Positions 1,623 to 46,000 of a stretch of DNA of 50,770 bases are shown here, piece by piece. The stretch comes from a virus. The notes beneath the pieces were generated by a model. The model saw only the letters and a list, made by a program, of their open reading frames with translations, made no database searches and was not told the DNA's origin. Position 1 is the stretch's first letter, and the number at the start of each line of letters is the position of its first letter. Position numbers and translations under genes: made by a program. The DNA is taken from IMG/VR virus record IMGVR_UViG_3300027779_002889, positions 1 through 50,770 of that record, one strand, 5' to 3'.

Positions 1623-2114
1623 ATGGTAACATCTAGCGCACTCGCGAATTTTCCATTCGCACGACCCCAAGATATAGAAAGAGCATTAAATGTTTCTGTC
1701 GGATTTGATGGAATATTTAATCGTTTATTTGATGATCTTGGTACAGTTCATCATTCAATCAATAGTGGTGGATTTCCCCCATACAATCTCAAAAAAGATG
1801 GATATAAGTATCTAATTGAAATGGCTGTAGCAGGCTTTTCAAAAGATGATATTTCCGTTCATGTTGAGAATGGTGTATTAACCGTTTCTTCTAAAGAGAA
1901 ACAAACTGTAAATGAATCCCATGAATTTGTACATCAAGGAATTGCAACAAGAACATTTAAACGTTCTTGGACAATTGCTGATGATGTTGAAATAAAAGAT
2001 GCGGATCTTGTTGATGGTATGTTAACAATACATTTGGAGCAAATCATCCCTGATTACAAGAAACCACGTGAGATCCCAATCGGCGGAAAAACAAGAAAAG
2101 CTATCAAAGGCTGA
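1623..2114 (+). CDS. hsp20: Small heat-shock protein, Hsp20/alpha-crystallin family
   Basis: An ATP-independent holdase chaperone that binds unfolding proteins in the host cytoplasm. The 163-residue product has a variable N-terminal arm, then an alpha-crystallin domain at about residues 55-150 with the typical YLIEMAVAGFSKDDISV and ENGVLTVSSKEK strands, followed by a C-terminal EIPI that fits the conserved I-x-I oligomerisation motif. Hsp20 genes are a known feature of marine T4-like phages, often found near replication genes as here. The strong AAGGAGG ribosome site at 1612-1618 fixes the start. The 3' end overlaps the Mom-like gene by 47 bases if that gene starts at GTG 2068. Confidence 0.92.
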   Translation: MVTSSALANFPFARPQDIERALNVSVGFDGIFNRLFDDLGTVHHSINSGGFPPYNLKKDGYKYLIEMAVAGFSKDDISVHVENGVLTVSSKEKQTVNESHEFVHQGIATRTFKRSWTIADDVEIKDADLVDGMLTIHLEQIIPDYKKPREIPIGGKTRKAIKG

Positions 2115-2787
2115 TTATACAGTCGAGCCCATAGAAACAAGAGCAGCATTGGATATGGTGATAAAAAATCATTATCTTCATCGTGTTGCCCCATGTTCTA
2201 AGGCTTATGGTATCTTTGAAAAAGGTGGGTTCTTTGGAGGAACATTAAAGGGTGTTGTTTGCTACGGAGTTCCCGCCTATAATCCAATCCTCAAATCCCT
2301 TTGTGGTGCGGATGAAATGAATAATATCTATGAGTTGACAAGACTCTGGATAGACGATGCTGTACCTAAAAATGGAGAAAGTTTTCTTATCTCAAATTCA
2401 ATTAAAAAATTGGATAAAGAGATTATAATATCTTATGCTGATTCATCAATGAATCATTTGGGCACAGTTTATCAATCATCAAATTGGTATTATATAGGAA
2501 TGAATAAAAGACATACTTCAGATATTGCAATAAAAGGAATGGATTTACATCCAGCAAGTATTACTGATAAATTTAGAGGACAAAAGAACAGAGTAGAAAA
2601 GCTCATAGAAATGTTTGGAGAAGAAAATATATATAGAAGAGAGAGATCATTAAAGTTTAGATATGTTGTCTTTAATGCAAATAAAAGACGTAAAAAGGAA
2701 CTAATGAAAAAATTAACTTATACTATTTTGCCATATCCAAAGGAAATTGAAAAAGGAGACAATGATGGAAAACTTACGACTAAGTAA
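2068..2787 (+). CDS. Mom-like adenine-modification protein (GNAT-fold acyltransferase-like)
   Basis: The sequence resembles the phage Mu Mom family, GNAT-fold enzymes that convert adenine in phage DNA to a bulky N6 derivative and protect it from restriction. Supporting text: NHYLHRV near the N terminus (about residue 34), YELTRLWIDD with PKNGESFLIS in the middle (about residues 88-108), and IISYADSSMNHLGTVYQSSN (about residues 120-140). The same layout recurs in the gene at 26312-27037. No ATG is well placed; GTG 2068 is the only reasonable start and overlaps hsp20 by 47 bases with no clear ribosome site, suggesting coupled translation. The end overlaps the endolysin gene. Family assignment is from remembered motifs; another GNAT activity is possible. 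Confidence 0.65.
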   Translation: MRSQSAEKQEKLSKADYTVEPIETRAALDMVIKNHYLHRVAPCSKAYGIFEKGGFFGGTLKGVVCYGVPAYNPILKSLCGADEMNNIYELTRLWIDDAVPKNGESFLISNSIKKLDKEIIISYADSSMNHLGTVYQSSNWYYIGMNKRHTSDIAIKGMDLHPASITDKFRGQKNRVEKLIEMFGEENIYRRERSLKFRYVVFNANKRRKKELMKKLTYTILPYPKEIEKGDNDGKLTTK

Positions 2788-8584: not shown

Positions 8585-9106
8585 ATGTGGTTTACTGAGA
8601 AATCAAAATTTGAAAATTTAAATAACGCTGTTTTGTCGGTAGTTAATCCTTCCGCAAACCCACCTGAGACAGATACACCTGAAGACGTTCAACCGGAAAT
8701 GACACCAGAAGAACAAAGAATTCCTGATGAAAATTCAGAAGTTTTACAAGAAACCGTAGATGAGGGCCTAGAATTACAAGTAAAGATGGCATTGTCTGAT
8801 ATTAATGTAGAAGGTAAATGGAAAAAAGGAAAACTTCATGTTCCAGCGAAACATGTAGATAAAGTCGATAAGCATTTAAGAAGTCAAGGAGTTAAGGATA
8901 CTTTTCATATCATGGGTGAAGAGGAAAATAAGTCAAACTTCGCTGATGCAATAGCGAAATTTAAAAAGCGTGGTGGAAAAGTTGAAAAATTACCACAGTC
9001 TCCTAATTATGGTAATTATGGTCATGGAATGACTAGAAAAGATAAAGAAGATGCTCAAAAAATTATAAAGTATCGAGATGAAAAAGGATATGCACTAAAA
9101 AAATGA
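8585..9106 (+). CDS. Uncharacterised acidic/lysine-rich protein, first gene of the tag cassette
   Basis: A 173-residue protein I do not recognise. After a short N-terminal stretch it has an acidic, proline-rich segment (about residues 20-60), then a basic domain with EGKWKKGKLHVPAKHVDKV (about 77-95) and a C-terminal Gly/Tyr/Lys-rich part. The GKW..GKLHV...V segment has a weaker counterpart in the next gene (around its residues 295-330), hinting at a shared module. It does not start with the MKTFK-type leader of its neighbours. GGAG at 8575-8578 sets the start, and its stop overlaps the next ATG (ATGA). Confidence 0.7.
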   Translation: MWFTEKSKFENLNNAVLSVVNPSANPPETDTPEDVQPEMTPEEQRIPDENSEVLQETVDEGLELQVKMALSDINVEGKWKKGKLHVPAKHVDKVDKHLRSQGVKDTFHIMGEEENKSNFADAIAKFKKRGGKVEKLPQSPNYGNYGHGMTRKDKEDAQKIIKYRDEKGYALKK

Positions 9107-10890
9107 AAACATTTAAATCTTATCAATCAGTAGAACTTGAAGAAGGTTCATCAGATACAACAGATATGTATGCATTGATGGTGAAGGGGTTGAAATCTAT
9201 GCCTGGTTCACCAAAACAAAAAGAGATCATCAAGCAGATAAATGTCATACGAAAAAGAATGGGTATGAAATTGATGAAAGAAGATTTCAATTTTGATGAA
9301 GCATCAAAATTACCTCCCCATCTCGCAAAGTTCTTTGACAAAAAAGGTAATCCAAAACCAGAAGTTGCAGCACGCATGAGAAAAGGGGCGAGACTACGAG
9401 ATGTAGAAATAACAGATGTAACGCCTAAGGGATATGGTCCTAAAGAAGAATTGGAAGTTAAAGAAGGATGGAAAAAAGGTAAACATAAAATTACTGATGA
9501 TAAAGGAAACATAGTTAGTACTCACAGTTCTGGAGCCAAAGCAGAACGAGAACAACAGAAACTTATGCAAACAGGTGATCACAAAAAACTAACTGTTGCA
9601 CAGGTAGGATCAACAAGCATATGGAAAAATGAAGAAGCGGATCTTGAAGAAGGTGATGATCGAAGGCAACGAAGTGAAAGAGAAGCAGTAAACAAAATTT
9701 CAAAAAAAGAATCTGAATGGGCGAAATCAAAACGTCTCGATAAAGAGATGGAAAACAAGTATGAAAAAATACATCAAGAACGAGATAAACGTTATATAGA
9801 GCAACAGAAAAACCAAAAGAAAGAAGAAGTTCAACAAGAAGGACATAAGGTAAAATGTCCAGAATGTAAAGGTAAAGGTTGTGATCATTGTGATGATAAA
9901 GGATTTCATATTGAAGAAGTTAAGCTTGAGGAAATGCCCAATAGAAGAAATATGGAAAGGATTAATTCTCTATTGAAGAAACATTCTGGAAAATTTAAAT
10001 GGAGAGATGATACATTACATGTTGAAAAGGGAATAGAGCGTGGTGTTAAGAGTACACTTTCTAAAGCTAAAAAGGATGTGCATGACCCGTTAGCTCATCA
10101 TCCAACAATTAAAGTTTCTGATAATCCAATGAGAGAAAATAAAAATTATAAACAATTTGAGAAAAATAAAAGTAATGTTTCAAAAAAGGATTCTATGAAA
10201 GAGGTTGAAAAATCCAATAAAGCCCAAGCAGGAATTGAAGAAGCACGAAAACCATATGACATATATCATCCAACTTATTCTGCAGCAGTTCAACACGCAA
10301 AAGATCACACCAAAAAAGCTCATGGTTTTGATGTAGATCAAGATTCATGGGACAGAGAAGTTACATTTGGGCAAAGAAAACCATCACCCGGCAAAACCGC
10401 TATCAAAAAAGTCAATTTAACAAAGGATGGAAAATCTGTTAAAAAAAGATTACACATGCAGGTTTATGGAATGGATAGTGGTAAATATGAATTAAACAAG
10501 TATGTTGAAGACTATGACGGCCCAATTGAAAATATCGCAAAACAAATATTAACAGAAGGCAATGGTCTTACTAAAGCAGATATTGCAGCGATGGCTAAAA
10601 AATTACGAGTACCACTTATTGATATTATAAATTGGGATCATGGTCCTGGTGCAGGAGGAAAAGAATGGCTCATTACATTAAGAGGTGGTCAACATTTAGA
10701 ATATATGGAAAAAAGTGGAATAGTAAAAATCCCTAAGGCAGCAAATCCTGATATGAAGGCAATGAAGGATTATTTAAAAAATATGAAAAGTATTGGTGGA
10801 GAAGCACCAGGAAAAATCGCAGATGTAAAATTAGGGAAAAATTATCTCATCGGCGGATTAGAAAATGCCTTCAAACTCCTTTCTAGATAA
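9103..10890 (+). CDS. Capsid-tag family protein with a CxxC zinc-type motif
   Basis: A 595-residue, very polar protein beginning MKTFKSYQSVELEEG, a variant of the leader shared by ten genes here and similar to the T4 internal-protein capsid-targeting sequence. L-E-E before G fits the L/I-x-E rule of prohead protease gp21. A cysteine cluster CPECKGKGCDHCDDKG (about residues 250-265) resembles half of a DnaJ-type zinc finger. The C-terminal ~130 residues (from about 460) look globular. Long Lys/Glu stretches contain many further L-x-E sites, so it might be processed into several pieces. Function unknown; it may be an internal head or core protein. The start overlaps the previous stop as ATGA. 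Confidence 0.75.
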   Translation: MKTFKSYQSVELEEGSSDTTDMYALMVKGLKSMPGSPKQKEIIKQINVIRKRMGMKLMKEDFNFDEASKLPPHLAKFFDKKGNPKPEVAARMRKGARLRDVEITDVTPKGYGPKEELEVKEGWKKGKHKITDDKGNIVSTHSSGAKAEREQQKLMQTGDHKKLTVAQVGSTSIWKNEEADLEEGDDRRQRSEREAVNKISKKESEWAKSKRLDKEMENKYEKIHQERDKRYIEQQKNQKKEEVQQEGHKVKCPECKGKGCDHCDDKGFHIEEVKLEEMPNRRNMERINSLLKKHSGKFKWRDDTLHVEKGIERGVKSTLSKAKKDVHDPLAHHPTIKVSDNPMRENKNYKQFEKNKSNVSKKDSMKEVEKSNKAQAGIEEARKPYDIYHPTYSAAVQHAKDHTKKAHGFDVDQDSWDREVTFGQRKPSPGKTAIKKVNLTKDGKSVKKRLHMQVYGMDSGKYELNKYVEDYDGPIENIAKQILTEGNGLTKADIAAMAKKLRVPLIDIINWDHGPGAGGKEWLITLRGGQHLEYMEKSGIVKIPKAANPDMKAMKDYLKNMKSIGGEAPGKIADVKLGKNYLIGGLENAFKLLSR

Positions 10891-10953: not shown

Positions 10954-12969
10954 ATGCCACAATCATTTAATCAATTTATAAGGGAAGAGCCAGGCCCTTA
11001 TAGAGATAAAGACTCCAAATCAAAAGACCCACACGCATATCATGTAGATCAACATGCCCATCACACAAAGCAGCAAAAAGATAAGAAACATCAAGGATTT
11101 AAACAATTAAGAAGAGGTGTAATATATAAAAGTAATAGTGGTTCTTGGGTTGGTGTTAAAAATGGTGAAAATAAAAGAGAATATTTTAATGATGCAATCC
11201 ATGCTACAGCTTGGGTTAATGGAACTCATCCGACAGGTGGTGAAGAAATTCAAAAATTAGATAGAAAAACCCAACAGAAAGATGATAAAGCTGAAAAACA
11301 TGGTTATAGTAAAGATGAAGTCCCACACGATTTTCGACATCCCTCTGAATCAAAAAAGAAAAGAGTAAAATCTGACACTCAAAATGCAAAATCTGTAGTT
11401 ACAAAATCAGAGAAAAAACCAACAGTAAAAGAAAAAACATCCGATCAAAAAAATAAACATAGACAAATTGAAACAGTAAGTATTGAAGATGCACAAAATA
11501 GTGATAGAGTGAATGAACCAATTGGTAAAGGAAAAGACTTAGAAGAATTTTTAGGTAATGTTAAATTTGCCACCCAGGGCCCTCCACCAGATAGATTTAA
11601 AATTCCAAATAATTTGCGTGGAAAAAAAGTGTCTCCTAGAGTTTTTGATCTTATTGAAAGAATGGCAAATTGTGAAGCCTCTGGTGCGGCGTCAGGAAAA
11701 TATCAGAATTATTCAGATGTTAAGGGTGGTGCTGGTAAAATCTTTGCTCAAGCGGGAGAATTGATGACAATGGCTATGACAACAATGGATGATAAAGATG
11801 CTGATCAATTTAGAGATGTTTTAAAAAAATATAATAAAGATTTAGAAGACACATACCCTGATTATAAAAAAGATAAGAAGGGGAAGATAAAAAGGAAAAA
11901 AGTAATTGATGATTCTTGGGTTGATGCGGCACACGGAAATAGAAAAGCAATATTTAATTATTTGAAAAAAGAACATGGAGAAGGTTCTGAAATAGAGTTT
12001 GGTTGTTGGGATACAAAAGAAGATGTTGAGGCTATGTGGGGTGAAGGTTATGATGAAAATAAAGGATATTCAACAGATGTTTTTTTCAGAGTTAAAGGAA
12101 AGGACGGCAGTTTTCTTCATGAAGTTTCATTAAAAAAATCTACACTTGTAAACTTTTTAAATTCTGGTACAGGAAAATTTGAAGCTTGGGATGATCAGTT
12201 ACCAGACCCCATTAAAGCATCTTTATTTGGGGAAAATCAAAGAAATAGATTAGTAGAGGCGGTAACTAAACATTTTGATAAAATTAATCCCAATGAACCA
12301 CCTTTATCAGACTTAATGAAGTCAAAAAAAGTTAGTGATTTAAAAGAACTGATAACAAACAAGAAAGAGGGCGGAAAGTGGGATTTAACTAGAGATAAAT
12401 CAAAAGTATTGTTGACAGCATTAAATCAAGTAGCGAAGGCTGGTGATGGAGAAGCTAAACAATTTCTTAAAGAACATAGACAAGTTAGCCAAGATTATCA
12501 AGATGCGGCAATAACGGCTATACTAGAAAATCCTAAATTAACAGAAGGAATGATGACTGATATCAAAGGTAATTTTCCATTGAAGGGCGTTTCTGAAAGA
12601 GAAGAAGTTATGGCAATTGGGGATCTTTCTTTAGATCCACATACAATGAAACATATATTTGGTACAGATGATTATAGTAAAATAAGTGAACGTTTTGAAC
12701 CATTGAAAGATGAAAAAGGAAACCCTTATATTGGATATAATGTTGAAGGTTCAAAAGAAGTTATTCCTGTTGCAGGTATTGGAATTAGAGAAGATGGGAA
12801 TGGATATGGTGGACAATTTAAATTTGAAATGGTATTACACAAAGGTTTTGCTGAACATCTAAAGAATGCTAATGACGCAATTTATGGAAATAAAAAACAA
12901 GATGAACAGGTTAAATATAAATCTATAGCACACGGTATTCATGAAATCCTTCAAACAAATAATACATGA
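10954..12969 (+). CDS. Large capsid-tag family protein; weak PD-(D/E)xK-like motif
   Basis: A 671-residue protein starting MPQSFNQFIREEPGP. SFNQFIRE aligns with the leader of its neighbours and I-R-E before E fits a gp21 cut. Residues about 20-190 are His/Lys-rich and probably disordered, with a small module GSWVGVKNG at about 63-71. The central part (200-450) is globular. YSTDVFF followed by FLHEVSLKKS (about 372-397) has the D...E-x-x-x-K spacing seen in PD-(D/E)xK nucleases, but this is a loose resemblance. The C-terminal 200 residues show nothing I recognise. A late-type promoter CATAAATA precedes it and its end overlaps the next gene by 29 bases. It may be an injected head protein. Confidence 0.72.
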   Translation: MPQSFNQFIREEPGPYRDKDSKSKDPHAYHVDQHAHHTKQQKDKKHQGFKQLRRGVIYKSNSGSWVGVKNGENKREYFNDAIHATAWVNGTHPTGGEEIQKLDRKTQQKDDKAEKHGYSKDEVPHDFRHPSESKKKRVKSDTQNAKSVVTKSEKKPTVKEKTSDQKNKHRQIETVSIEDAQNSDRVNEPIGKGKDLEEFLGNVKFATQGPPPDRFKIPNNLRGKKVSPRVFDLIERMANCEASGAASGKYQNYSDVKGGAGKIFAQAGELMTMAMTTMDDKDADQFRDVLKKYNKDLEDTYPDYKKDKKGKIKRKKVIDDSWVDAAHGNRKAIFNYLKKEHGEGSEIEFGCWDTKEDVEAMWGEGYDENKGYSTDVFFRVKGKDGSFLHEVSLKKSTLVNFLNSGTGKFEAWDDQLPDPIKASLFGENQRNRLVEAVTKHFDKINPNEPPLSDLMKSKKVSDLKELITNKKEGGKWDLTRDKSKVLLTALNQVAKAGDGEAKQFLKEHRQVSQDYQDAAITAILENPKLTEGMMTDIKGNFPLKGVSEREEVMAIGDLSLDPHTMKHIFGTDDYSKISERFEPLKDEKGNPYIGYNVEGSKEVIPVAGIGIREDGNGYGGQFKFEMVLHKGFAEHLKNANDAIYGNKKQDEQVKYKSIAHGIHEILQTNNT

Positions 12970-14572
12970 AAATGATCTTGCGGCAACACTTTCTACTGAT
13001 GTAAGAAATGCGGTCAAACGAGGTGGTGGTAAGATATATCAAATTGGTGGTGCGGTAAGAGATGAAATTTTAGGAAAAGTATCAAAAGATTTAGATCTTT
13101 TAGTGGTTGGAATAGAATTAGAAGCTTTAGGTAAAATTTTAGAACCATTTGGAAAGGTAAATCTGGTTGGAAAATCTTTTGGTATTATTAAGTATACTCC
13201 AGAAGGTAGCTCCGGAGAAATTGATATTTCAATTCCTAGAATAGATTCAAAGAGTACGGGAAAGGGACATAAGGATTTTGAAGTCAAATTAGGAAAGGGA
13301 ATTACACTTCAACAAGATCAATTAAGAAGAGATTTTTGGATTAATGCTCTAGCAAAAGATTTAGATACAGGAAAAGTAATTGATATAGGTCGAAAAGGTA
13401 TGACGGATTTGAAGAAAAAAGAAATCCGTATGATTAGTCCAGTTGCATTTGAAGAAGATCCATTGAGAATGTTGCGTGCAGTACAGTTTGCGGCAAGATT
13501 TGAATTTAAGATTGAATCAAAAACATTTGAAGAAATAAAGAAAAACGCAAAGTCTATATCAACAGTTTCATCAGAGAGATTTCAAGAAGAGTTTCGTAAG
13601 ATGTTTACTAAAGCAGAGAAACCTAGTATTGGAATTAAATTATTATTTGATACAGGATTAATTGATCATATTTTACCACAATCAAATTTAAGAAAAATTG
13701 ATCTTGCATCAATTGATAAACTTGATAAAAAAGCATTTCCCGCATTTATGGGAATGTTAATGAATGGATATGGTACAAATGCAGGAAAAGAGGTTATAAG
13801 TAAAATGAGATTATCAAATAATGATGCTGAAGCAGTTCAAAGTGTAGTCACATATACAGATAACTCTCCATTTTTAGAAAAAAATGATTTTAAACTTGTT
13901 CAATTTATAAAAAATGTTGATAATAAAGGTATCGCAAATATAGATGAATATTTAAAGGTAAAGAATAGACCTACTCTTTCTAGTAGACTTAGAAGAATGA
14001 CTGTGACATCAATTAAAGATCTTTCAATTGGAGGAAGAGATTTAATGGGAATAGGACTGAAAGGGATACAAGTAGGAGATGCTCTTAATTATGCTCTTGA
14101 ATTTGCAGTTAATACTGGTAAAAATAATAAATTAGAATTATTGAGAGCAATTAAAAATAAATATAACATTAAAGAAGAAGTCAAGGTTGAAAGTGTTTTG
14201 AAGTATATGTTATCTTCAAAAGATATGGGAGCATTATCAAAAATGAGAGATGGTGTTGTGACGAAAAATTCAGATATGAAACCAATAAAAGATTTACATA
14301 TAACTCTTGCAGCTGGGCCTGAATGGAAAAAATTGAGAAAAAGATTATTTCATAATTCTTTACCAGACCCAAATTTTAAATTAGAGTTTGAAAAACCAAA
14401 GAAAGTGAAGTTTGGTGGAAGAGTATCGTGGTATACGAAAGTAAAACAGCAAAAACAACTCAAGGATTATGTTACTGATTTAATACAAGCAAATCCAGAT
14501 CCTAAGAGAATTTTTCATGTATCACTTGCAAATAAAACAGGTAATTCAGGAGATTCAGTTGCGAACATTTAA
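12941..14572 (+). CDS. tRNA nucleotidyltransferase / poly(A) polymerase family, with capsid-tag leader
   Basis: A class II CCA-adding or poly(A)-polymerase-type enzyme that would add nucleotides to RNA 3' ends. Evidence: IGGAVRD (residues 35-41), catalytic D50 and D52 in KDLDLLV, RRDFWINALA (129-138), EEDPLRMLRAVQFAARF (about 171-187) and the following helical neck. No HD phosphohydrolase domain is seen. The C-terminal ~130 residues (from about 415) form a basic extra domain. The N terminus, MKSFKQIIHEN, precedes the enzyme core and matches the leader shared by its neighbours, with I-H-E as a likely gp21 cut. This suggests packaging in the head, which is unusual for this family. CCA versus poly(A) specificity cannot be read by eye. 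Confidence 0.85.
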   Translation: MKSFKQIIHENDLAATLSTDVRNAVKRGGGKIYQIGGAVRDEILGKVSKDLDLLVVGIELEALGKILEPFGKVNLVGKSFGIIKYTPEGSSGEIDISIPRIDSKSTGKGHKDFEVKLGKGITLQQDQLRRDFWINALAKDLDTGKVIDIGRKGMTDLKKKEIRMISPVAFEEDPLRMLRAVQFAARFEFKIESKTFEEIKKNAKSISTVSSERFQEEFRKMFTKAEKPSIGIKLLFDTGLIDHILPQSNLRKIDLASIDKLDKKAFPAFMGMLMNGYGTNAGKEVISKMRLSNNDAEAVQSVVTYTDNSPFLEKNDFKLVQFIKNVDNKGIANIDEYLKVKNRPTLSSRLRRMTVTSIKDLSIGGRDLMGIGLKGIQVGDALNYALEFAVNTGKNNKLELLRAIKNKYNIKEEVKVESVLKYMLSSKDMGALSKMRDGVVTKNSDMKPIKDLHITLAAGPEWKKLRKRLFHNSLPDPNFKLEFEKPKKVKFGGRVSWYTKVKQQKQLKDYVTDLIQANPDPKRIFHVSLANKTGNSGDSVANI

Positions 14573-14828
14573 ACAACATCTAAAAGAAAAAGTAGAATAT
14601 TATTTGGACACATCTAAGGATAATACTGAGAAATATGTAGCATATGATGGTAGCTCTTGGCATACAGGTAGAGTTGGTGTGAAAGGAGAAAATATGTTTA
14701 TAAAGCTCGTGGCTACACATGGAAAAAATAGTTATTTTGAACGTGCCAAGTTAAAAAAGGTAACACCAGAGAAACTTGAAAAAGAAGCTGGTACAAGAGT
14801 GGATTTTAAAAAACTTTATAAAAGATGA
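14559..14828 (+). CDS. Small capsid-tag family protein, 89 residues
   Basis: I start this gene at TTG 14559 and not at the upstream ATG 14517: AGGAG at 14548-14552 is correctly spaced for 14559, and the resulting N terminus MRTFKQHLKEK reproduces the leader of its neighbours, with L-K-E as the likely gp21 site. The remaining ~78 residues are basic, with alternating hydrophobic residues and WHTGRVGVKGENMFIKL (about 35-51), suggesting a small beta-barrel or SH3-like fold. No family is recognised. It overlaps the nucleotidyltransferase gene by 14 bases and its stop overlaps the next ATG, so all three are translationally linked. Confidence 0.75.
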   Translation: MRTFKQHLKEKVEYYLDTSKDNTEKYVAYDGSSWHTGRVGVKGENMFIKLVATHGKNSYFERAKLKKVTPEKLEKEAGTRVDFKKLYKR

Positions 14829-15760
14829 AAACATTTAAAGGATATCTAAAAGAAGACCCGCCAGCTTGGCAAAGAAGCGCTTCTGAAAAAATATTTGAAT
14901 TTCAACAAATTCAGTATATGCAAATTCCATTAACATCTAGCACAATGGAATGGATTTTTCAAGTACAATTACCAAGAGCAACGGTGTTTCATGTTACAAA
15001 TGGTATTGGTTTAGATAAGTTAAAGAAATTACAGAATAGGAAAAAATCAATTTCTGCTTTTTTTAATATGGACGCCGGTACTATGGAACATGGTATACAA
15101 GGTGGGGGCGGACTTATTGTAGAATTAGATGCAAATATTATTATGTCAAGTAAGGGTGATTTGATGAGTATGCCAGATAAAACCGGCAGACGATGGGTTG
15201 AATTGATGAACATAGACAAAAAAAAGACTATGCATAAAGAACTTGAAAAGATGTTGATAGACCTTGCAATAAAACATGATCCAAAAACTAAAGAACTCAT
15301 AAAAATAGAACCAGATATAGGATTGGGAGCTTGGTGGCATTTACAAGGAGCCTTTAAAGATGATGGTAAAAAGATGTCTTTGATAATTGCAGATTATATT
15401 GATGGTGTAAATGTAATTCTCAAGAAGCATAAAAAAGATATTCAAGGAGCAGTTCATGGATATTATGTCAGAAGGGGAACAGTAGCAGTTAAGCATCCCT
15501 CTGGTCGTATGGTAGGAGGAGATTCAGAATTATCAGAATGGAATGTATACGATGAACAAGTAGTCGATAAAATTAAAATTATAAAAGTTCATACTTTTAA
15601 TACGAAAACTAGAGAAACAGATTGGATAAAAAAATCAGTAATTCCAAGATTAGGTAAAATTCCTCATACACATTGGGTGAATGGAGCTAGAGACTTATCA
15701 AATTATGTTACTAAAATTGCACAAACAGAAGTACAAGCCTTGAGGAGAAGTAAAGGTTGA
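14825..15760 (+). CDS. Capsid-tag family protein, possible ADP-ribosyltransferase (paralogue 1)
   Basis: A 311-residue protein starting MKTFKGYLKED, the shared leader with L-K-E before D. It is a paralogue of the next gene: both contain TVFHV (H56 here), KKSISAFF (S75/S77), a GGGGLIVELDA strand, GRRWVEL and YDEQVVDKIKIIKV (D243/E244). The order H, S-x-S, then E followed by a beta strand recalls the catalytic order of ADP-ribosyltransferases, and the last part resembles the equivalent segment of T4 Alt. Alt is itself a packaged, injected ADP-ribosyltransferase acting on host RNA polymerase. The function is inferred from motif order alone. ATGA overlap with the previous gene. Confidence 0.7.
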   Translation: MKTFKGYLKEDPPAWQRSASEKIFEFQQIQYMQIPLTSSTMEWIFQVQLPRATVFHVTNGIGLDKLKKLQNRKKSISAFFNMDAGTMEHGIQGGGGLIVELDANIIMSSKGDLMSMPDKTGRRWVELMNIDKKKTMHKELEKMLIDLAIKHDPKTKELIKIEPDIGLGAWWHLQGAFKDDGKKMSLIIADYIDGVNVILKKHKKDIQGAVHGYYVRRGTVAVKHPSGRMVGGDSELSEWNVYDEQVVDKIKIIKVHTFNTKTRETDWIKKSVIPRLGKIPHTHWVNGARDLSNYVTKIAQTEVQALRRSKG

Positions 15761-16683
15761 AAACCTATCTTGATTTAGTTTTAACAGAATTTGCGCAAAC
15801 AAGTGCGTCAAATCTTGTGTTTGATGTTGCAAGTCAAGGGAGAGCCTCTAGTGCTTTAAAGATTCCTATTTCAGGGCCCATGTTTAAAAGGATATGGCCA
15901 GATACGATACGTACAACAGTTTTTCATGTGCTGAGGGCAGAAAACTTATATGAATTAAAAAAACTTGAGGGGGGAAAGAGGTCCATCTCAGCATTTTTCA
16001 CAATGATGTCTCGTTATTTGGAAGGTGGTATAGCTGCAGGAGGCGGCGTTGTTGCAGAACTGGATGCCGATATTATTGTATCTGCCAGAGATGATATAAT
16101 GAGTACTGTAGATACAGCGGGTAGAAGATGGGTTGAAATGTCTTGGTTTGCTAATGCACAAAGGGGTGGAACGGGACCCAAATTTGCAGTAGTAGAACGT
16201 GAACTTAATGTTTTAATAAGAGAACTTGTATTAAAACATCTTAGTCCAATACTGGGAAAAGATAGAGTGCGAAGAGAATTTGAATTTGAACTTTGGAATG
16301 ACATGAAAAAACACCTGTCTGGAGATGGTAGAGCATTAAGATTGGTAATAAAAGATTATTTTGATGGTGTAGAGAAAATTATTAAAAAGAATTCAGAGGT
16401 AATGAGTAGTATATTTTATGGTTATGCAAAATCAAAAAGACAAACAGATAGTTCATGGGATGAACAAATAGTCAATAATATTAAGATTAAAAAAATTCAT
16501 TATATACCAATTAAAGTAGATAATGAAGAAGAAGATGGAAATATTGAAAATGAAGAACAGCAAGAAAATATAGATGCATTTGTTGCAAAATACAGGATAC
16601 CATCAAAGAGATGGGAATATTCTTCGGAGTTAGAAATTTATACAAGAGAAGTTGTTGCAAAAGAAATTGGAAGGAAAATTTGA
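15757..16683 (+). CDS. Capsid-tag family protein, possible ADP-ribosyltransferase (paralogue 2)
   Basis: A 308-residue paralogue of the preceding product. The start is TTG 15757, overlapping the previous stop (TTGA), with GAGGAG at 15742-15747 and AAAGG closer in. The leader MKTYLDLVLTE ends in L-T-E before F, again the gp21 pattern. Matching positions are TVFHV (H57), KRSISAFF (S76/S78), GGGVVAELDA, GRRWVEM and SWDEQIVNNIKIKKI (E236). It differs from paralogue 1 in the middle (about 135-185) and has an acidic segment rich in Glu/Asn/Asp near 255-275. An ADP-ribosyltransferase-like fold is my inference; an entirely different fold cannot be excluded. Two diverged copies suggest different targets. 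Confidence 0.7.
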   Translation: MKTYLDLVLTEFAQTSASNLVFDVASQGRASSALKIPISGPMFKRIWPDTIRTTVFHVLRAENLYELKKLEGGKRSISAFFTMMSRYLEGGIAAGGGVVAELDADIIVSARDDIMSTVDTAGRRWVEMSWFANAQRGGTGPKFAVVERELNVLIRELVLKHLSPILGKDRVRREFEFELWNDMKKHLSGDGRALRLVIKDYFDGVEKIIKKNSEVMSSIFYGYAKSKRQTDSSWDEQIVNNIKIKKIHYIPIKVDNEEEDGNIENEEQQENIDAFVAKYRIPSKRWEYSSELEIYTREVVAKEIGRKI

Positions 16684-16916
16684 TGAAAACTTTTAAAGAC
16701 CATTTAATTGAGGGTATGCCAAGAGGTATGATAGTTGCATTTGATGCACCTAAAGGTGAAGTTCAAATTTATAGAAAAGGATTAAAAGGATTTTATGGTG
16801 ATGCATGGAACAAATTTGATTTTTCAGCAAAAGATGTAAAAGAACTTAGAGACAAATTAAAAGATATGGGGGTTAATCCAGATAAACCTTCTTTTGGGGA
16901 ATTACCAAAAAAATGA
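16683..16916 (+). CDS. Small capsid-tag family protein, 77 residues
   Basis: The ATG at 16683, with AAGGA a few bases upstream, gives the leader MKTFKDHLIEG (L-I-E before G, a textbook gp21 site); a longer frame from 16611 lies inside the previous gene and would hide it. The rest is a small domain with GMIVAFDAPKGEVQIYRKG and a C-terminal helix followed by a Pro-rich end. No family recognised. Its start overlaps the preceding TGA by one base and its stop overlaps the next ATG, so it is a middle member of a tightly coupled string. It resembles T4 internal proteins in being small, basic and leader-bearing. Confidence 0.75.
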   Translation: MKTFKDHLIEGMPRGMIVAFDAPKGEVQIYRKGLKGFYGDAWNKFDFSAKDVKELRDKLKDMGVNPDKPSFGELPKK

Positions 16917-18145
16917 AAACGTTTAGAGACATATTACTTATTGAAGCAAAAGCTGGTAAAAATCTACATTTAGAACACATAGAAGATGAAGTTTTAAATG
17001 GTGGAGTGGCTGGGACTAGAGGTTCAATTAATTTTATGCAATCACTTAGAGATATGTTGGCGGGATCTTCAACGAAAAATACCTACATTACCACTAAATG
17101 GGACGGTGCACCTGCGGTTTTTTGTGGAATTAATCCTGATAATGGTAAATTTTTTGTTGGATCGAAAAGCATTTTCAATAAAACACCTAAAATAAATTAC
17201 ACACCACAAGATATTGATGATAATCATCCTCCTGGACTTGCATCAAAGTTAAAAGTTGCTCTGGAACATTTACCAAAATTGGGAATTAGCGGGGTATTAC
17301 AGGGAGATATGATGTTTGCTAAAGAAGATTTGCTAATTAAAACCATAGAAGGAGAGAGATATATCACTTTTCATCCAAATACTATAGTTTATGCGGTTCC
17401 TTTGGGTTCTGATTTGGGAAAAACGATATTAAACTCAAAAATGGGCATTGTTTTTCATACGGAATACAAAGGTACAAAATTAGAAGATATGAAATCGTCT
17501 TTCAATATAAATATTAACAGGTTATTAAAGAATAAAGATATCTGGTTTAGAGATGCAGAATTTACTGATGCATCCGGTACAGCAAGCTTCACAGCAAGGG
17601 ACACGGAGACTATTACTAAAATTCTTTCTTCTGTAGGAAGAACTTTTCAAAACATATCAGCGAATACACTAAACATGATAGCTGATGATTCTGAAATTAA
17701 TACAATTATAAAAACTTTTAATAATAGCAAAATAAAAACAGGACAACAAATAAGAAATACAAGAACACATGTGACACAATTGATAAGATATATAGGAAAT
17801 AAATACGATAAAGATATTAATAAATTAAAAACTGATGCATCTAAAGATAAAAAAACACAACGGAAAAATGAGTTTTTGAAGTTCTTCCTACAGAAGAAAG
17901 CTGATTTAGAAAAAATATTCGATTTAATGAATATGTTAATTGATGCTAAAATGATGATAATATCTAAATTGGAAAATATGGAACAATTAACGCAAACTTT
18001 TGTTAAAGATGGTGCTGGTTATAAAGTAACTGCTCCAGAGGGGTTTGTGGCGGTAGATCAAATAAAAGGCGGAGCAGTCAAATTGGTTGACCGGCTAGAA
18101 TTTTCAAGAAATAATTTTAATGTAGAACTAAAGAATTGGAGCTAA
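16913..18145 (+). CDS. Capsid-tag family protein with ligase-like KWDG motif
   Basis: A 410-residue protein with leader MKTFRDILLIEAKAG (L-I-E before A). A conserved-looking core follows: TTKWDGAPAVFCGI (K62-W-D-G65), GKFFVGSKSIFNK (about 78-90), GVLQGDMMF (127-135) and ERYITFHPNTIVYAV (about 147-161). K-x-D-G is motif I of nucleotidyltransferase-fold DNA/RNA ligases, where the lysine is adenylated, and LQGDMM is in the right place for the motif III strand, though ligases normally have E where this has D. I recall similar uncharacterised proteins in marine T4-like phages. Residues 230-410 are mostly helical and Lys-rich. Ligase or capping-like activity is a hypothesis. ATGA overlap with the previous gene. 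Confidence 0.75.
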   Translation: MKTFRDILLIEAKAGKNLHLEHIEDEVLNGGVAGTRGSINFMQSLRDMLAGSSTKNTYITTKWDGAPAVFCGINPDNGKFFVGSKSIFNKTPKINYTPQDIDDNHPPGLASKLKVALEHLPKLGISGVLQGDMMFAKEDLLIKTIEGERYITFHPNTIVYAVPLGSDLGKTILNSKMGIVFHTEYKGTKLEDMKSSFNININRLLKNKDIWFRDAEFTDASGTASFTARDTETITKILSSVGRTFQNISANTLNMIADDSEINTIIKTFNNSKIKTGQQIRNTRTHVTQLIRYIGNKYDKDINKLKTDASKDKKTQRKNEFLKFFLQKKADLEKIFDLMNMLIDAKMMIISKLENMEQLTQTFVKDGAGYKVTAPEGFVAVDQIKGGAVKLVDRLEFSRNNFNVELKNWS

Positions 18146-19045: not shown

Positions 19046-19516
19046 ATGGGTAAAGGATTTTCTGATTATTTGAAAAAAGAAGACGTTAAAGTTAATGAAA
19101 TGTCTAAAGAATTGCTTTATAAAGCTGCAAGGAAAGCAGAAGTTCAAGGAAGAGAGCCTAACCCTACTGGTGCAGATTATAGCATGAAGAGCCCTGAAAT
19201 AAGAAAAAAACGAAGAGGACAAGCTGTAAAATTTGTTAAAGGAATGGCTAAAAAAGAATTTGGTGAAAAGAAAGAAGGATCTTTTGCAGATTTTAAATCA
19301 TTCTTTGAGGGAGTGAATAAGAATCAAAATTATGGAGTTGTAAAAATAAAAGGAAAACCAGAACGAATTCCTCAACATTCTTCAGGTGAAATTGTTTTCC
19401 TTGGCAATAAAAAGGTAGCATCAAAACATTTAAAACAACTTAAAAAAGATGGCAATAACGGGTATTTGACTTTTGGTATGCATCAGAAACTTGGAGATAA
19501 GGTTAAGGGAAAATGA
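19046..19516 (+). CDS. Capsid-tag-like basic protein, 156 residues
   Basis: The N terminus MGKGFSDYLKKEDVKVNE is a looser version of the shared leader (F-S-D-Y-L-K-K-E), lacking a strict L/I-x-E at that point. Internally, FADFKSFFEG (about residues 81-90) looks like a second tag copy, so the gene may be a fusion of two tag-bearing units. The C-terminal half contains VVKIKGKPERIPQHSSGE and a Lys-rich helix. The protein is strongly basic, as expected for DNA-associated internal head proteins. No family is recognised. The stop overlaps the next ATG (ATGA). Confidence 0.65.
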   Translation: MGKGFSDYLKKEDVKVNEMSKELLYKAARKAEVQGREPNPTGADYSMKSPEIRKKRRGQAVKFVKGMAKKEFGEKKEGSFADFKSFFEGVNKNQNYGVVKIKGKPERIPQHSSGEIVFLGNKKVASKHLKQLKKDGNNGYLTFGMHQKLGDKVKGK

Positions 19517-20904
19517 AAACATATAAAAATCTCATAAAAGAAGCAAAAGGTAAGACAGGAGTATTTGTTTTTGGTAGATTTAATCCACCAACAACTGGTC
19601 ATGGTCGATTGTTGGAAGGGGCAAGTAATGTAGCAAAAAGATATAATACTGAATTACATGTTTTTGGAAGTCAATCTCATGATTCTAAAAAGAATCCATT
19701 GACTAATCAACAAAAAATGAAATATATGAAGGAAATGTTTCCTAATTTTGTTAAAACTTTTTCCAGAGATATTAATATTAAAGATGCATTAGGGGCAGCA
19801 GTACAATTAAATGATCAGTATGATAATTTATGTATGGTTGTAGGAAGTGATAGAGTTGCAGATTTTAAAAAATTGTTAGAACAATATAATGGTAAAAAAT
19901 CAAGACATGGATATTATGAATTTGATTACATTAAAGTTCATAGTGCAGGAACAAGAGATCCAGATGCAGAAGGAGTGTCAGGAATGTCTGCTTCTAAAAT
20001 GAGAAAAGCGGCATCAGAAAATGATATAGAATCATTTAAAAAGGGATTACCAGAGGCAATGTCAGATAGATCCGCGATGAAAATGTTGAAGGATGTTAGA
20101 AAGGGATTGAATTTAAGAGAGGCAATGTTTGATAGAGAATGGCCAATTAGACCTGAAAGACTTACAATTGATAAACCAAAAAATGATAATGAATATGTTT
20201 ATTTAAATTATGAAACAGAATATTTTTCAAATATGCCGTTAGTTGAAGAATGTTTCAAAGAACTTAGAGCTATTATATTATCACAATCAAAACATAATGT
20301 TTATGTCGTTGAGGCAATGAAAGAAACGGATAAATTAATTAGTAATATGTTATTGTTTGAACATGGAAAAGATGGATTAGAAGATGGTATAAAATATTCT
20401 GTGAAAAAAATAGATAAACTTTTTGAAAATATAGAACACGATTATAATTGTACAAAGGGAGATATTTTCAACAGACCATTTTTATATCAAATTTTAGAAT
20501 CTTTATCATGGGGTCCACATCCTGGTAAAATGGATACATCAGACACACAAGAAAATGGCAGATTTGGACAACATGTGGATCAGCGTGGGCCGTTGGAATG
20601 GGGAACTCCTGAGATGGTGAAATCTTATGCTGGTGATACTCCAGGACAAGATGCAGAAAAACTTCTTTATGCTACATATAAGTATAAAATGCAAAGAGAT
20701 GTTACGGGAGAGGTTGATGGATATGGAACTGTTGAATTAGCACAAGAAGAAGGCCCAGTAGCAAAAGTAAAAAAAGAATATGCTAAAAAATATAAGGCTT
20801 TAATATCAGATAGAAAAGTAAATGTTGGTGGAGCAAGAGTAGATTATGCGAATAAAACATTAAAATCAGCACAAAAATATAATTCAATTAGAATAGGACA
20901 ATAA
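19513..20904 (+). CDS. Capsid-tag family nucleotidylyltransferase (cytidylyltransferase/NMNAT-like)
   Basis: The leader MKTYKNLIKEA is nearly the T4 internal-protein sequence, with I-K-E before A. It is followed at once by a nucleotidylyltransferase core: VFVFGRFNPPTTGH (residues 17-30, a T-x-G-H form of the HxGH motif), VVGSDRV (about 115-121) and GMSASKMRKA (about 157-166), matching the second conserved motif of NMN/nicotinate-mononucleotide and pantetheine-phosphate adenylyltransferases and cytidylyltransferases. Residues 190-463 are an extra region of unknown fold. Its substrate cannot be told; NAD synthesis from NMN is one possibility, attractive because two neighbours may use NAD. Packaging in the head is inferred from the leader. 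Confidence 0.82.
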   Translation: MKTYKNLIKEAKGKTGVFVFGRFNPPTTGHGRLLEGASNVAKRYNTELHVFGSQSHDSKKNPLTNQQKMKYMKEMFPNFVKTFSRDINIKDALGAAVQLNDQYDNLCMVVGSDRVADFKKLLEQYNGKKSRHGYYEFDYIKVHSAGTRDPDAEGVSGMSASKMRKAASENDIESFKKGLPEAMSDRSAMKMLKDVRKGLNLREAMFDREWPIRPERLTIDKPKNDNEYVYLNYETEYFSNMPLVEECFKELRAIILSQSKHNVYVVEAMKETDKLISNMLLFEHGKDGLEDGIKYSVKKIDKLFENIEHDYNCTKGDIFNRPFLYQILESLSWGPHPGKMDTSDTQENGRFGQHVDQRGPLEWGTPEMVKSYAGDTPGQDAEKLLYATYKYKMQRDVTGEVDGYGTVELAQEEGPVAKVKKEYAKKYKALISDRKVNVGGARVDYANKTLKSAQKYNSIRIGQ

Positions 20905-26311: not shown

Positions 26312-27037
26312 ATGGTAGATAGCATAAATCATGAAGGAGTAGATTTTCACTTCTATACAGGTGAAAGATTATCCGCTAGAGATCTTGTTTTAAAATATCA
26401 TTATTCTGGAAGATGTCATAATAATCCAATTTTAGTTGGAAGTCTTCATTTAAATGGTGGATTATTTGGTGATAAAGGAGAAATTGTTGCAGCATGTTTT
26501 TTTGCATTGTCTAATAATAATACATGGTCAGTGAAGAAAGTTAATGTTATTGAGCTTGTTAGATTAGTTAGGAAAGAGAGCATTAAAGCTCCTCTTAGTT
26601 GGCTTATATCAAAAACTATCAAAGCTTTAAAGAGAAAGGGTGGTTATGATATTGCGATTTCTTATGCGGATGCTACGCAAAAACATCATGGAGGAATTTA
26701 TCAGGCGTGTTCTTGGAATTTTCATGCATATAGAAAACCAGGAGAAGACGGTTTAATAATTGATGGAGAATTTGTTCCACGCAGAAGCGTTTCAACTAGA
26801 TTTGGAACTTATGCTAAAGGGAAATTGGGAGCAATGTTTGATGAAGTTAAAGATGATCCTGGAATTTTAGCATTTGCTGGTGAAAAGGAAACGGTTAAAA
26901 CTATTGAATGGACTGAACATATTGATAAAGGTAAATATTTATATTGGATTCCATTAAATAAAAAAGGAAAACATATTGCGATAAAGGAATTGGATTTTGA
27001 GAATAATACATATCCAAAACCAGAGAAAGAATTATGA
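26312..27037 (+). CDS. Second Mom-like adenine-modification protein (GNAT-fold)
   Basis: A 241-residue protein with the same motif layout as the product of 2068-2787: KYHYSGR near the N terminus, IELVRLVRKESIKAPLSWLI in the middle, and YDIAISYADATQKHHGGIYQ followed by ACSWNF. These are shared with the Mu Mom-like family, GNAT-fold enzymes that modify adenine in phage DNA. The two copies differ strongly elsewhere, so they are ancient paralogues or separate acquisitions and not a recent duplication. It starts one base after the primase stop, with AAGGA upstream, and overlaps the next gene (ATGA). DNA modification would agree with co-transcription with primase. Confidence 0.65.
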   Translation: MVDSINHEGVDFHFYTGERLSARDLVLKYHYSGRCHNNPILVGSLHLNGGLFGDKGEIVAACFFALSNNNTWSVKKVNVIELVRLVRKESIKAPLSWLISKTIKALKRKGGYDIAISYADATQKHHGGIYQACSWNFHAYRKPGEDGLIIDGEFVPRRSVSTRFGTYAKGKLGAMFDEVKDDPGILAFAGEKETVKTIEWTEHIDKGKYLYWIPLNKKGKHIAIKELDFENNTYPKPEKEL

Positions 27038-43056: not shown

Positions 43057-46000
43057 ATGGCACAAGTTACAGTTGATGTTCCATCCTTTGCATTAACAGT
43101 TGAAAAAAAACAACCAGTACAAGTCAGAACTGATGTTTCATTTGCTAAAATCGCTTCACATGGTGAAGACGGCTTTATTCAATATGCTAATAGTAATGCT
43201 TTAGGTTCACATCCATCTCTCGCCTTTAATGCAAATACAAATACTACCTCTATAGAGAGTTTAAATTCAGTAGATGCTGTTATAACTACTGCAAATATAA
43301 CTACAGCAAACATTTCTACTTTATTTACAGGATCTACCATTGTTTCTGATGGTCAGTTTGGTGATGTAACTATAACAGATGGACTTATTGTTGGTGAAAA
43401 TGTAACAGTTTCAGGAAATCTCACGGTAACTGGACAAACAACCACAATTGAAAGCACAGTATTAACAGTCGATGATAAACATATAGAACTTGCATCAACT
43501 GATTCTCCGTCAGATGTTAATGCTACTGGTGGTGGAATCATACTTAAAGGTGATACTGATAAAACTATAATATGGGCAAATTCTACAAAATCTTGGAATT
43601 TTAACCAAGATGTTGATATTAAAAAAGTCACATCAGCTGATAGTAGATTATTAATTGATGCAGTTCAAGTAGCAAATAGTTCTCTTCTTTCTCCTTCTTC
43701 AAAAATAATTGTTCCAATAGCTAATATAACAACTGCTAATGTAGCAACAGCATATGTTACAGATTTAACAGTTTATAATGCTTTTCAAGTTGGCTCTGGA
43801 ACTACGACAATTACGACAGATTATCTTAAAACTGGAGTAATTAATATAACAACCAGTAATATAGCAACATCATATATTACGTCATCAGCAACGATTTTTA
43901 AAGAAGATGTAGAAGAATCTAATGTAACTGTAGCAAATGTTGGTACTCTATTTGTATCTGGCGATGCCACAGTACATGGTGACATTACAATAGGTGGTGA
44001 AATTAATCTTGGTGATTCTGATACGGATAGTTTAACAATTGCAGCAGATTTAACTTCTCATATAGTTCCAAATGTTGTAGATACTTATGATTTGGGTGAT
44101 GATACTAAACGTTGGAGAAATGTTTATCTCTCTGGTGCAGCACATGCGGCAACAAAGATAACCACTCCTGAGGCGAATATTTCTGTAGCAAATGTTAGTA
44201 CTCTATTTGTAACTGGTGATGCGACAGTACATGGAGATATTACAATTGGTGGAGCAATTGCTCTTGGTGATGCTGATACAGACAGTTTAACAATTGCGGC
44301 AGATTTAACTTCTCATATAGTTCCAAATGCTACAAATACTTATGATTTAGGTACTGATGCGAAGAGATGGAAAGATATTTACCTTTCTGGTGCAGCACAT
44401 GCAGCATCCAAAATAACAACACCTGAAGCAAATATTACAGTTTCTAATACAGTAACTTCATATACAACATCTTCTTTGGTTCTTCCTGTTGGGGATGATG
44501 CCGCTAGAGTAGATACTCAGGGTGGAGTTAGATATAGTACCACACAAAGCACATTTGAAGGTTATGATGGTTCCGCTTGGGGATCTTTGGGTGGGGTTAT
44601 TGATATTGATCAAGATACTTACATTAAAGCTGAAACATCAGCAGGTGCGGACAATGATATTTTAGATTTTTTTGTTACGGGAACAAGACAAGCGTATATT
44701 AGTAATGCGGGAGTTGTAGCAATAACAACTAAGATGACTGTTCCTGAAGCTAATGTTACTGTAGCAAATGTTGGAACCCTTCACGCAACCACAATTAATA
44801 CCGGAACAATTAATGCAAGTGATGGTACAACTGCAATAACTATAGATGATTCAACTGCTAAAGTTATTCTTGCCGGTGATTTACAAGTTGATGGAACAAC
44901 TACCACACTTAATAGTACAACATTAACTGTAGATGATAAAAATATAGTTGTTGCGAGTGGAGCGGCAGACAGTGCTGCGGCTGATGGAGCAGGACTTACA
45001 GTAGATGGTGCATCAGCAACAATTTTATATCAACATAATGGCACTAAATGGATTGTTAATAAACCATTTACGGCGGCGGAAGCAAATCTTACAGTAGCAA
45101 ATATAGCAACTTCATATACCACATCTTCTTTAGTTCTTCCTGTCGGAGATAATAGTACTAGGGTTAATTCACAAGGAGGAATTAGATATAGTACTTCTCT
45201 TGCAACATTTGAAGGGTATGATGGCTCTAATTGGGGATCTCTTGGTGGAGTTATTGATGTCGATCAAGATACTTATATAACAGCAGAAGCGACAGCAGAT
45301 AAAGATAGTTTAGATTTTTTTACTGCCGGCAGCGAACGAATGAGTATTGATTCGACAGGCGACGTAACAATTGATGGGGATTTAAAAAATGCGATTTTAA
45401 GCACAGCAAAAATAGGTACACCTACAGAAGCGACATGGAATGATGGTGCATTAACAGGTATAAACGAAACATATGATAGTCATGTTCCATTAACAGGATT
45501 TTCATCTACTGATAATATACCAGATGCGTTTGATAATGTTAATGAACTTATGCATAATATCTATAAAGAAACATATGTGAGACATGCTAAATTTTCTGCA
45601 AATGTTTTATCTGGTCCGGCAACACTTACAACAACCTTTACTGTAGATTCTGACGTTTATAATGGATACGATGCAAATTCATATGAATGGATTTTTGGTG
45701 ATGGTGGATCTCATACAACAACTAGCACAAGTTATGAATATGATTATACTGGTGCGTCTGGTGGAACATTTGATGTTACATTAACAGCAAGAAATACTAG
45801 TGCTCCAGCTGGTACTGCGGGTAGTTATGCAACATTTAAACGAACAGGATATATAGTAGTTTATACACCGGCACCTGTAGCCCTTTTTACATATGCATAT
45901 AACCAAAAAACAGGATCTGTTGCTGCTACTGCCCATACAACAACACCGGCATATATAGATGAAACTTTACCTGAAAGTGGAACTACTCATGATGTAACAT

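What the first reader, a model, noticed from the sequence alone, without database searches (positions are those of the whole stretch)
19513..20904. Capsid-tagged nucleotidylyltransferase possibly linked to NAD supply
GRFNPPTTGH and GMSASKMRKA are those of the NMN/cytidylyltransferase superfamily, right after a near-canonical leader MKTYKNLIKEA. If it makes NAD, it could feed the two ADP-ribosyltransferase-like neighbours or refill NAD consumed by NAD-depleting host defences. The substrate is unknown.
Basis: inference. Interest (0 to 1): 0.62.

Follow-up and report, generated by a model that had tools for sequence, protein, structure and literature searches.

The report
Virion-packaged adenylyltransferase paired with ligase-like protein
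This marine T4-like phage gene encodes a nucleotide-transferring enzyme that carries the T4-type 'pack me into the head' tag, so it is probably injected with the DNA; its conserved partner looks like an RNA ligase, which makes repair of cut RNA as good a guess for its job as making NAD.

Summary
ORF 19513-20904 starts with MKTYKNLIKEA (T4 IPII/IPIII: MKTYQEFIAEA) and has an intact HIGH-superfamily nucleotidylyltransferase (NT) domain; homologues occur in 532 phage records. In marine relatives the leader is almost always kept, and a second prohead-protease-like LxE site ends the domain. Orthologues were found by mass spectrometry in virions of cyanophages S-SM1, S-SCSM1, S-CREM2 and S-CBWM1, so packaging is credible and partly published, as is the NMNAT guess. 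The NAD link is unproven: fold and profiles say adenylyltransferase (PPAT/NMNAT class, nearest NadM), but all hits lie far below NMNAT cut-offs, no Trp is conserved, T replaces H in HxGH, and NAPRTase is absent from 8 of 9 records. The 'ART-like' neighbours match no family. New here: the conserved partner DUF6267 (upstream in 46 of 48 loci) has a predicted RNA/DNA-ligase fold (Naegleria RNA ligase, Z 8.1) and invariant ligase-like motifs. NT phages with DUF6267 lack Rnl1/Rnl2; three of four without it have both. Pol-beta, PNK-like kinase and CCA-enzyme genes join the tagged set in some lineages. I favour an injected nucleotide/RNA-end repair set; the substrate is unknown.

The parts
19513..20904 (+). 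capsid-tagged HIGH-superfamily nucleotidylyltransferase gene (463 aa)
19513..19545 (+). N-terminal leader MKTYKNLIKEA; predicted prohead-protease cut LIKE|A after residue 10
   Evidence: T4 IPII/IPIII leader MKTYQEFIAEA; conserved in relatives
19573..19602 (+). GRFNPPTTGH, HIGH/TxGH nucleotide-binding motif (residues 21-30)
   Evidence: G21, R22, N24, P25, P26, T27, G29, H30 invariant in 72 sequences
19552..20121 (+). nucleotidylyltransferase domain, residues 14-203
   Evidence: AF2 pLDDT about 90 over most of it; PPAT Z 13.8, NadM/NadD Z 12.6-12.7
19981..20010 (+). GMSASKMRKA, the SxxxxR motif of the superfamily (residues 157-166)
   Evidence: S159, A160, R164 invariant
20113..20124 (+). LREA (residues 201-204), LxE site at the domain end; predicted second prohead-protease cut
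   Evidence: [LIV]xE at this place in 77/89 relatives against 19% of background windows
20122..20901 (+). C-terminal tail, residues 204-463, mostly helical, no known domain
   Evidence: low pLDDT; kept in close relatives only
16913..18145 (+). DUF6267 partner, predicted RNA-ligase fold, leader MKTFRDILLIEA
   Evidence: Pfam DUF6267 1.2e-116; ligase fold; upstream of the NT in 46/48 loci
12941..14572 (+). CCA tRNA nucleotidyltransferase with leader MKSFKQIIHE
   Evidence: PolyA_pol 7e-19; NCBIfam CCA model 1.4e-40
14825..15760 (+). tagged protein (MKTFKGYLKE) of unknown family, the 'ART-like' neighbour 1
   Evidence: no family or PDB hit
15757..16683 (+). paralogue of the previous (TTG start, KTYLDLVLTE), the 'ART-like' neighbour 2
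   Evidence: 33% identity to 14825-15760
16683..16916 (+). small tagged protein, internal ATG start MKTFKDHLIE within ORF 16611-16916
   Evidence: start offset 24 codons
10954..12969 (+). tagged protein MPQSFNQFIREE, 671 aa, unknown family
9103..10890 (+). MKTFKSYQ.. protein, 595 aa, unknown family
19046..19516 (+). small basic protein just upstream, GFSDYLKKE leader-like start

Best explanation
The gene encodes a head-packaged enzyme. Its T4-type leader takes it into the prohead core, and the gp21-type protease probably cuts after LIKE (residue 10) and after LRE (residue 203), freeing a roughly 190-residue HIGH-superfamily nucleotidylyltransferase that enters the host with the DNA. The domain most likely transfers AMP from ATP to a phosphate-bearing acceptor (PPAT/NMNAT-type chemistry). 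It acts at the start of infection together with a co-conserved, usually co-tagged DUF6267 protein that has a predicted RNA-ligase fold. In this window a tagged CCA-adding enzyme joins them; in relatives a Pol-beta nucleotidyltransferase or a PNK-like kinase is fused to, or encoded beside, one of the pair. The most likely role of the set is repair or conditioning of RNA (tRNA) ends, or of the adenylate cofactors this needs, against host RNA-cutting defence. Shown: sequence, conservation, gene association, predicted folds. From papers: virion detection of orthologues. Inferred: processing, injection, AMP transfer, the RNA-repair role.
For: Leader and T4 match. gp21-type protease (PF03420) in all five complete phage genomes checked and in G001, the 79-kb contig of a 97%-identical relative. 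Virion mass spectrometry of orthologues: PMC3037559 (S-SM1, T4-GC190), PMC9602691 (S-SCSM1, citing S-CBWM1), PMC10665884 (S-CREM2); the detected S-SM1 and S-SCSM1 proteins start MKKFSAFLNEA and MKSFLQFLKEA. Fold. Invariant catalytic residues. DUF6267: upstream in 46/48 loci, present in all 11 records with a tagged NT that were searched, ligase fold with all of the best 50 VIA rows ligases, invariant K62-x-D-G, E376-G, K390. Known RNA ligases Rnl1/Rnl2 in 0 of 10 NT records with DUF6267 and in 3 of 4 without. Pol-beta-NT fusions in 7 loci, NT-kinase in 2, kinase-DUF6267 in 1. CCA enzyme.
Against: No activity or substrate data. DUF6267's fold match is modest (Z 8.1, rmsd 3.7) and no sequence profile links it to ligases. 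In cyanophages S-SM1 and S-SCSM1 the DUF6267 protein is shorter and has no leader, and in S-SCSM1 it is not annotated as a virion protein, so the two need not travel together. Some phages have the NT without DUF6267. The CCA enzyme is confined to this clade. The pattern of DUF6267 against Rnl could follow phage lineage rather than function. The virion papers themselves warn of possible carry-over.
Confidence: 0.42

Rival explanations
1. It is an injected NMN (or NaMN) adenylyltransferase that restores or raises NAD at the start of infection, as the first reader and published cyanophage papers suggest.
For: Nearest single comparison is a phage NadM-Nudix NMNAT (hhalign prob 90%, E 1.6e-6); NadD and NadR models match most members weakly (59 and 57 of 82); two NT-kinase fusions recall NadR architecture; literature speculation.
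Against: All hits far below cut-offs (25 against 341 bits for NadR); no conserved Trp and Leu/Ile at the NadD Trp position; TxGH instead of HxGH; NAPRTase absent in 8 of 9 records and the ninth has its own NadM-Nudix; the fused kinases are AAA_33/Zeta-like rather than NadR-like.
Confidence: 0.28
2. It is an adenylyltransferase for another small phosphate ester (phosphopantetheine-like, a flavin, or a defence nucleotide), unrelated to RNA or NAD.
For: Best Z is to PPAT (13.8) with NMNAT within about 1 unit; TxGH and the SKKP/KKNP motif are shared with E. coli CoaD; strictly conserved family-specific insert SAGxRDPD.
Against: Does not explain the near-universal DUF6267 partner or the Pol-beta, kinase and CCA neighbours.
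Confidence: 0.22
3. A packaged protein with a lost or minor enzymatic role, kept as a head-core or DNA-condensing protein.
For: Leader, low-complexity charged C-terminal tails and many tagged proteins of unknown family in the block.
Against: All catalytic-motif residues are invariant across 72 diverse sequences; strong purifying selection; untagged stand-alone domains of about 185-190 aa persist in jumbo phages.
Confidence: 0.06

Closest known systems
T4-GC190 'cytitidyltransferase' / 'NMNAT' of marine T4-like cyanophages (PHROG 395 and 3041)
   Same: Same family, same place after uvsX-gp41, leader present (S-SM1 MKKFSAFLNEA, S-SM2 MKSFFQFLSEA); detected in virions (PMC3037559, PMC9602691, PMC10665884)
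   Different: Window protein has the leader directly before the domain and a different C-terminal tail; its neighbours include a tagged CCA enzyme
T4 internal proteins IPII/IPIII and their capsid-targeting sequence
   Same: About 10-aa leader, similar in sequence, with an LxE/IxE cut site; gp21-type protease in relatives
   Different: Cargo is a conserved enzyme, not a small basic protein
NadM/NadM-Nudix NMN adenylyltransferase
   Same: GRFxP..xGH, KNP and SxxxxR motifs, fold
   Different: Below all cut-offs, T for H in HxGH, no conserved Trp, extra SAGxRDPD insert, no Nudix domain
PPAT (CoaD)
   Same: TxGH, best structural Z
   Different: 15.7 against a cut-off of 103 bits; extra insert
RNA ligases (Naegleria RNA ligase, T. 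brucei REL1, T4 Rnl1/Rnl2) for the DUF6267 partner
   Same: Predicted fold; KxDG, EGxV and K-L motifs in ligase order
   Different: No sequence-level match; a helical insertion of more than 100 aa before motif IV

Membership tests
T4-type capsid-targeted internal proteins | short N-terminal leader like MKTYQEFIAEA | tested here: met
   7/11 identical; conserved in relatives
T4-type capsid-targeted internal proteins | gp21-type prohead protease in the phage | tested here: met
   PF03420 in G001 (79-kb contig of a 97%-identical relative) and in 5 complete phage genomes; the window itself is a fragment without head genes
T4-type capsid-targeted internal proteins | presence and cleavage in mature virions | not testable with these tools
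   orthologues found by mass spectrometry in papers; cleavage not reported in the passages read
HIGH-superfamily nucleotidylyltransferases | (H/T)xGH and SxxxxR motifs on a Rossmann-like fold | tested here: met
   Pfam over cut-off; Z up to 13.8; invariant motifs
NMN/NaMN adenylyltransferase | score over the curated NadD/NadM/NadR cut-off | tested here: not met
   14-25 bits against 112-341
NMN/NaMN adenylyltransferase | aromatic (Trp) stacking residue for nicotinamide, as in NadD and NadM | tested here: not met
   no Trp-conserved column; Leu/Ile at the NadD position; role of the Trp is from general knowledge
NMN/NaMN adenylyltransferase | NMN + ATP to NAD activity | not testable with these tools
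   enzyme assay needed
PPAT (CoaD) | score over the curated CoaD cut-off | tested here: not met
   15.7 against 103.3 bits
CTP-dependent cytidylyltransferases | match to a CTP-specific model | tested here: inconclusive
   only the general superfamily models match; no TagD/CCT-type model listed
RNA/DNA ligase superfamily (DUF6267 partner) | motif I KxDG, motif IV EGxV, motif V K | tested here: met
   invariant in 46 sequences
RNA/DNA ligase superfamily (DUF6267 partner) | ligase fold | tested here: met
   the 50 best VIA rows are RNA or DNA ligases, best Z 8.1; Foldseek alone weak
RNA/DNA ligase superfamily (DUF6267 partner) | lysine adenylylation and ligation | not testable with these tools
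   assay needed
ADP-ribosyltransferases (the two neighbours) | match to any ART family or structure | tested here: inconclusive
   no hit in Pfam, PHROGs, NCBIfam or PDB sequences; not folded

The most novel reading that the evidence does not exclude
Marine T4-like phages inject a ready-made RNA-end repair set: a DUF6267 RNA ligase of a new family with a dedicated HIGH-superfamily adenylyltransferase, plus in some lineages a Pol-beta or CCA nucleotidyltransferase and a PNK-like kinase. It works before any phage gene is expressed, against host tRNA- or RNA-cutting defences.
Probability: 0.25. Interest if true: 0.85.

Novelty: new variant of a known kind. Interest (0 to 1): 0.52.

Why it matters
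The family is a core gene of cyanomyoviruses (T4-GC190) that has stood for years as a 'cytitidyltransferase' of unknown role, repeatedly seen in virions. The leader, shared with T4 IPII/IPIII, explains how it could get there. Predicting its constant companion DUF6267 to be an RNA-ligase-fold protein turns a loose NAD guess into two testable alternatives. If the repair reading is right, phages carry RNA repair into the cell with their DNA rather than making it after infection.

Tried and rejected
Substrate by family score: all subfamily models are below cut-off, so undecided. Substrate by fold: PPAT and NMNAT rows lie within about 1.5 Z units, so undecided. PDB sequence searches with single protein and profiles: only weak hits, best MJ0951 UPF0348 (E 9e-4), a TmcAL-like lead that I did not pursue further. 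E. coli NadD, NadR and CoaD comparisons align over motif I or little more. An ART reading of the neighbours: no support. DUF6267 sequence profile against PDB: chance hits only. tRNA and Rfam scans of the window: none. PADLOC: nothing for window proteins. DUF6267 is not named in any paper of the library. Whether the leader in marine phages has been described before could not be settled with the papers held.

Full report
What is there. Window 19513-20904 encodes 463 aa: leader MKTYKNLIKEA, GRFNPPTTGH (21-30), GMSASKMRKA (157-166). The start overlaps the upstream gene (aaATGAaa) with a purine-rich ggttaaggga before it. The window is a virus record of 50,770 bases. Gene order DNA polymerase, uvsX, gp41, then a block of tagged genes is that of Kyanoviridae-type T4-like phages such as Methylophilales phage Melnitz and Pelagibacter phage HTVC008M.

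Is it real. The NT domain matches Pfam CTP_transf_like above cut-off, PHROGs 3041 and 395 and 532 phage records, mostly marine cyanophages. The gene is under purifying selection. The catalytic-motif residues are invariant across 72 sequences.

The tag. T4 IPII and IPIII both begin MKTYQEFIAEA; the T4 capsid-targeting sequence of about 10 residues is known from IPII/IPIII (PMC9958956). In the window MK[ST][FY] starts are confined to the 8.6-22.3 kb block (5/13 against 0/37). In relatives 78/84 NT genes have such a stretch 17-23 residues before the HIGH motif; jumbo-phage relatives (GAP32, Atu_ph07) lack it. A second LxE sits at the end of the domain in 77/89 relatives against 19% of background windows; I infer that the prohead protease frees the domain. 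A gp21-type protease is present in the relatives whose genomes are complete enough.

Virion evidence from papers. T4-GC190, a cyanophage core gene, was detected in S-SM1 virions (PMC3037559); in S-SCSM1, and by citation S-CBWM1 (PMC9602691); and in S-CREM2 (PMC10665884). The authors caution about carry-over and speculate on NMNAT. The detected S-SM1 and S-SCSM1 proteins carry the leader. Packaging and the NAD idea are therefore not new.

Substrate. AF2 gives a confident domain (pLDDT about 90 over most of residues 14-203; tail poor). Structural ranking: PPAT Z 13.8, NadM/NadD about 12.6. Sequence models: NadD 59/82, NadR 57/82, CoaD 35/82 members, all far below cut-offs. Nearest single comparison: the NadM-Nudix of phage DLP6, prob 90% over 149 columns. 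But the family has TxGH rather than HxGH, no conserved Trp, and an invariant SAGxRDPD insert. DLP6 itself carries NAPRTase, a NadM-Nudix and, separately, the tagged NT. I conclude: probably an adenylyltransferase, acceptor unknown.

The partner. DUF6267 (16913-18145) lies upstream of the NT in 46 of 48 loci with enough sequence and occurs in all 11 records with a tagged NT that were searched; the PHROG 455 profile spans both domains. Its AF2 model (pLDDT 79) retrieves RNA and DNA ligases in all 50 best VIA rows, Naegleria RNA ligase Z 8.1, REL1 8.0, T4 Rnl2 and Rnl1 7.2; Foldseek alone is weak. K62-x-D-G, E376-G and K390 are invariant and sit in ligase motif order. Known RNA ligases (PF09511, PF09414) are absent from the 10 NT records that have DUF6267 and present in 3 of 4 that lack it, as expected if one replaces the other; lineage could also explain it.

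Company. The window adds a tagged CCA enzyme. Relatives fuse the NT to a Pol-beta nucleotidyltransferase (7 loci) or to an AAA_33/Zeta-like kinase (2), or fuse that kinase to DUF6267 (1); leader-bearing adenylate kinases also occur. Pol-beta enzymes, CCA enzymes and kinases beside RNA ligases are the parts list of phage RNA repair in the jumbo-phage survey (PMC7824862).

Judgement (my estimates). Packaging likely (about 0.85). Adenylyltransferase likely (about 0.75). RNA-end repair set about 0.4, NAD supply about 0.3. The 'ART-like' neighbours are unsupported.

Noticed in passing
window 2068-2787 and 26312-27037: Two Mom-like DNA-modification proteins (PHROG 1384, 8.6e-54 and 9.6e-29) in one phage fragment.
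   Followed up: no
L082:3327-5573: One ORF joins a Zeta/PNK-like kinase to DUF6267, the architecture of a kinase-ligase repair enzyme.
   Followed up: partly
L057:1118-2404; L096:6001-7278: NT domain fused to an AAA_33/Zeta-like kinase behind the leader.
   Followed up: partly
L050, L064, L068, L071, L074, L084, L095: Leader-bearing Pol-beta nucleotidyltransferase fused N-terminally to the NT; in L068 a PAP2 phosphatase domain as well.
   Followed up: partly
L071:3864-4430; L068:62-637: Adenylate kinases with capsid-type leaders (MKSFRQFLEA, MKFFERFIRE) upstream of the NT.
   Followed up: no
L017:8016 (phage C48C1, OQ984149): Annotated start of its cytidyltransferase cuts off the leader and the start of the GR motif; an in-frame upstream start at about 7950 restores both.
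   Followed up: yes
window 10954-12969 and 9103-10890: Large leader-bearing proteins with no family; the first shows a possible PD-(D/E)xK-like pattern by eye. L014:12203-13288 and L015:11547-12605 look similar.
   Followed up: no
L105:1242-6720 (phage S-SCSM1): Several genes flanking the NT (SSCSM1_89, 90, 92, 93) are annotated as virion proteins by the depositors; the whole block may be packaged.
   Followed up: partly
window 43057-48609: 1850-aa protein with PKD domains.
   Followed up: no
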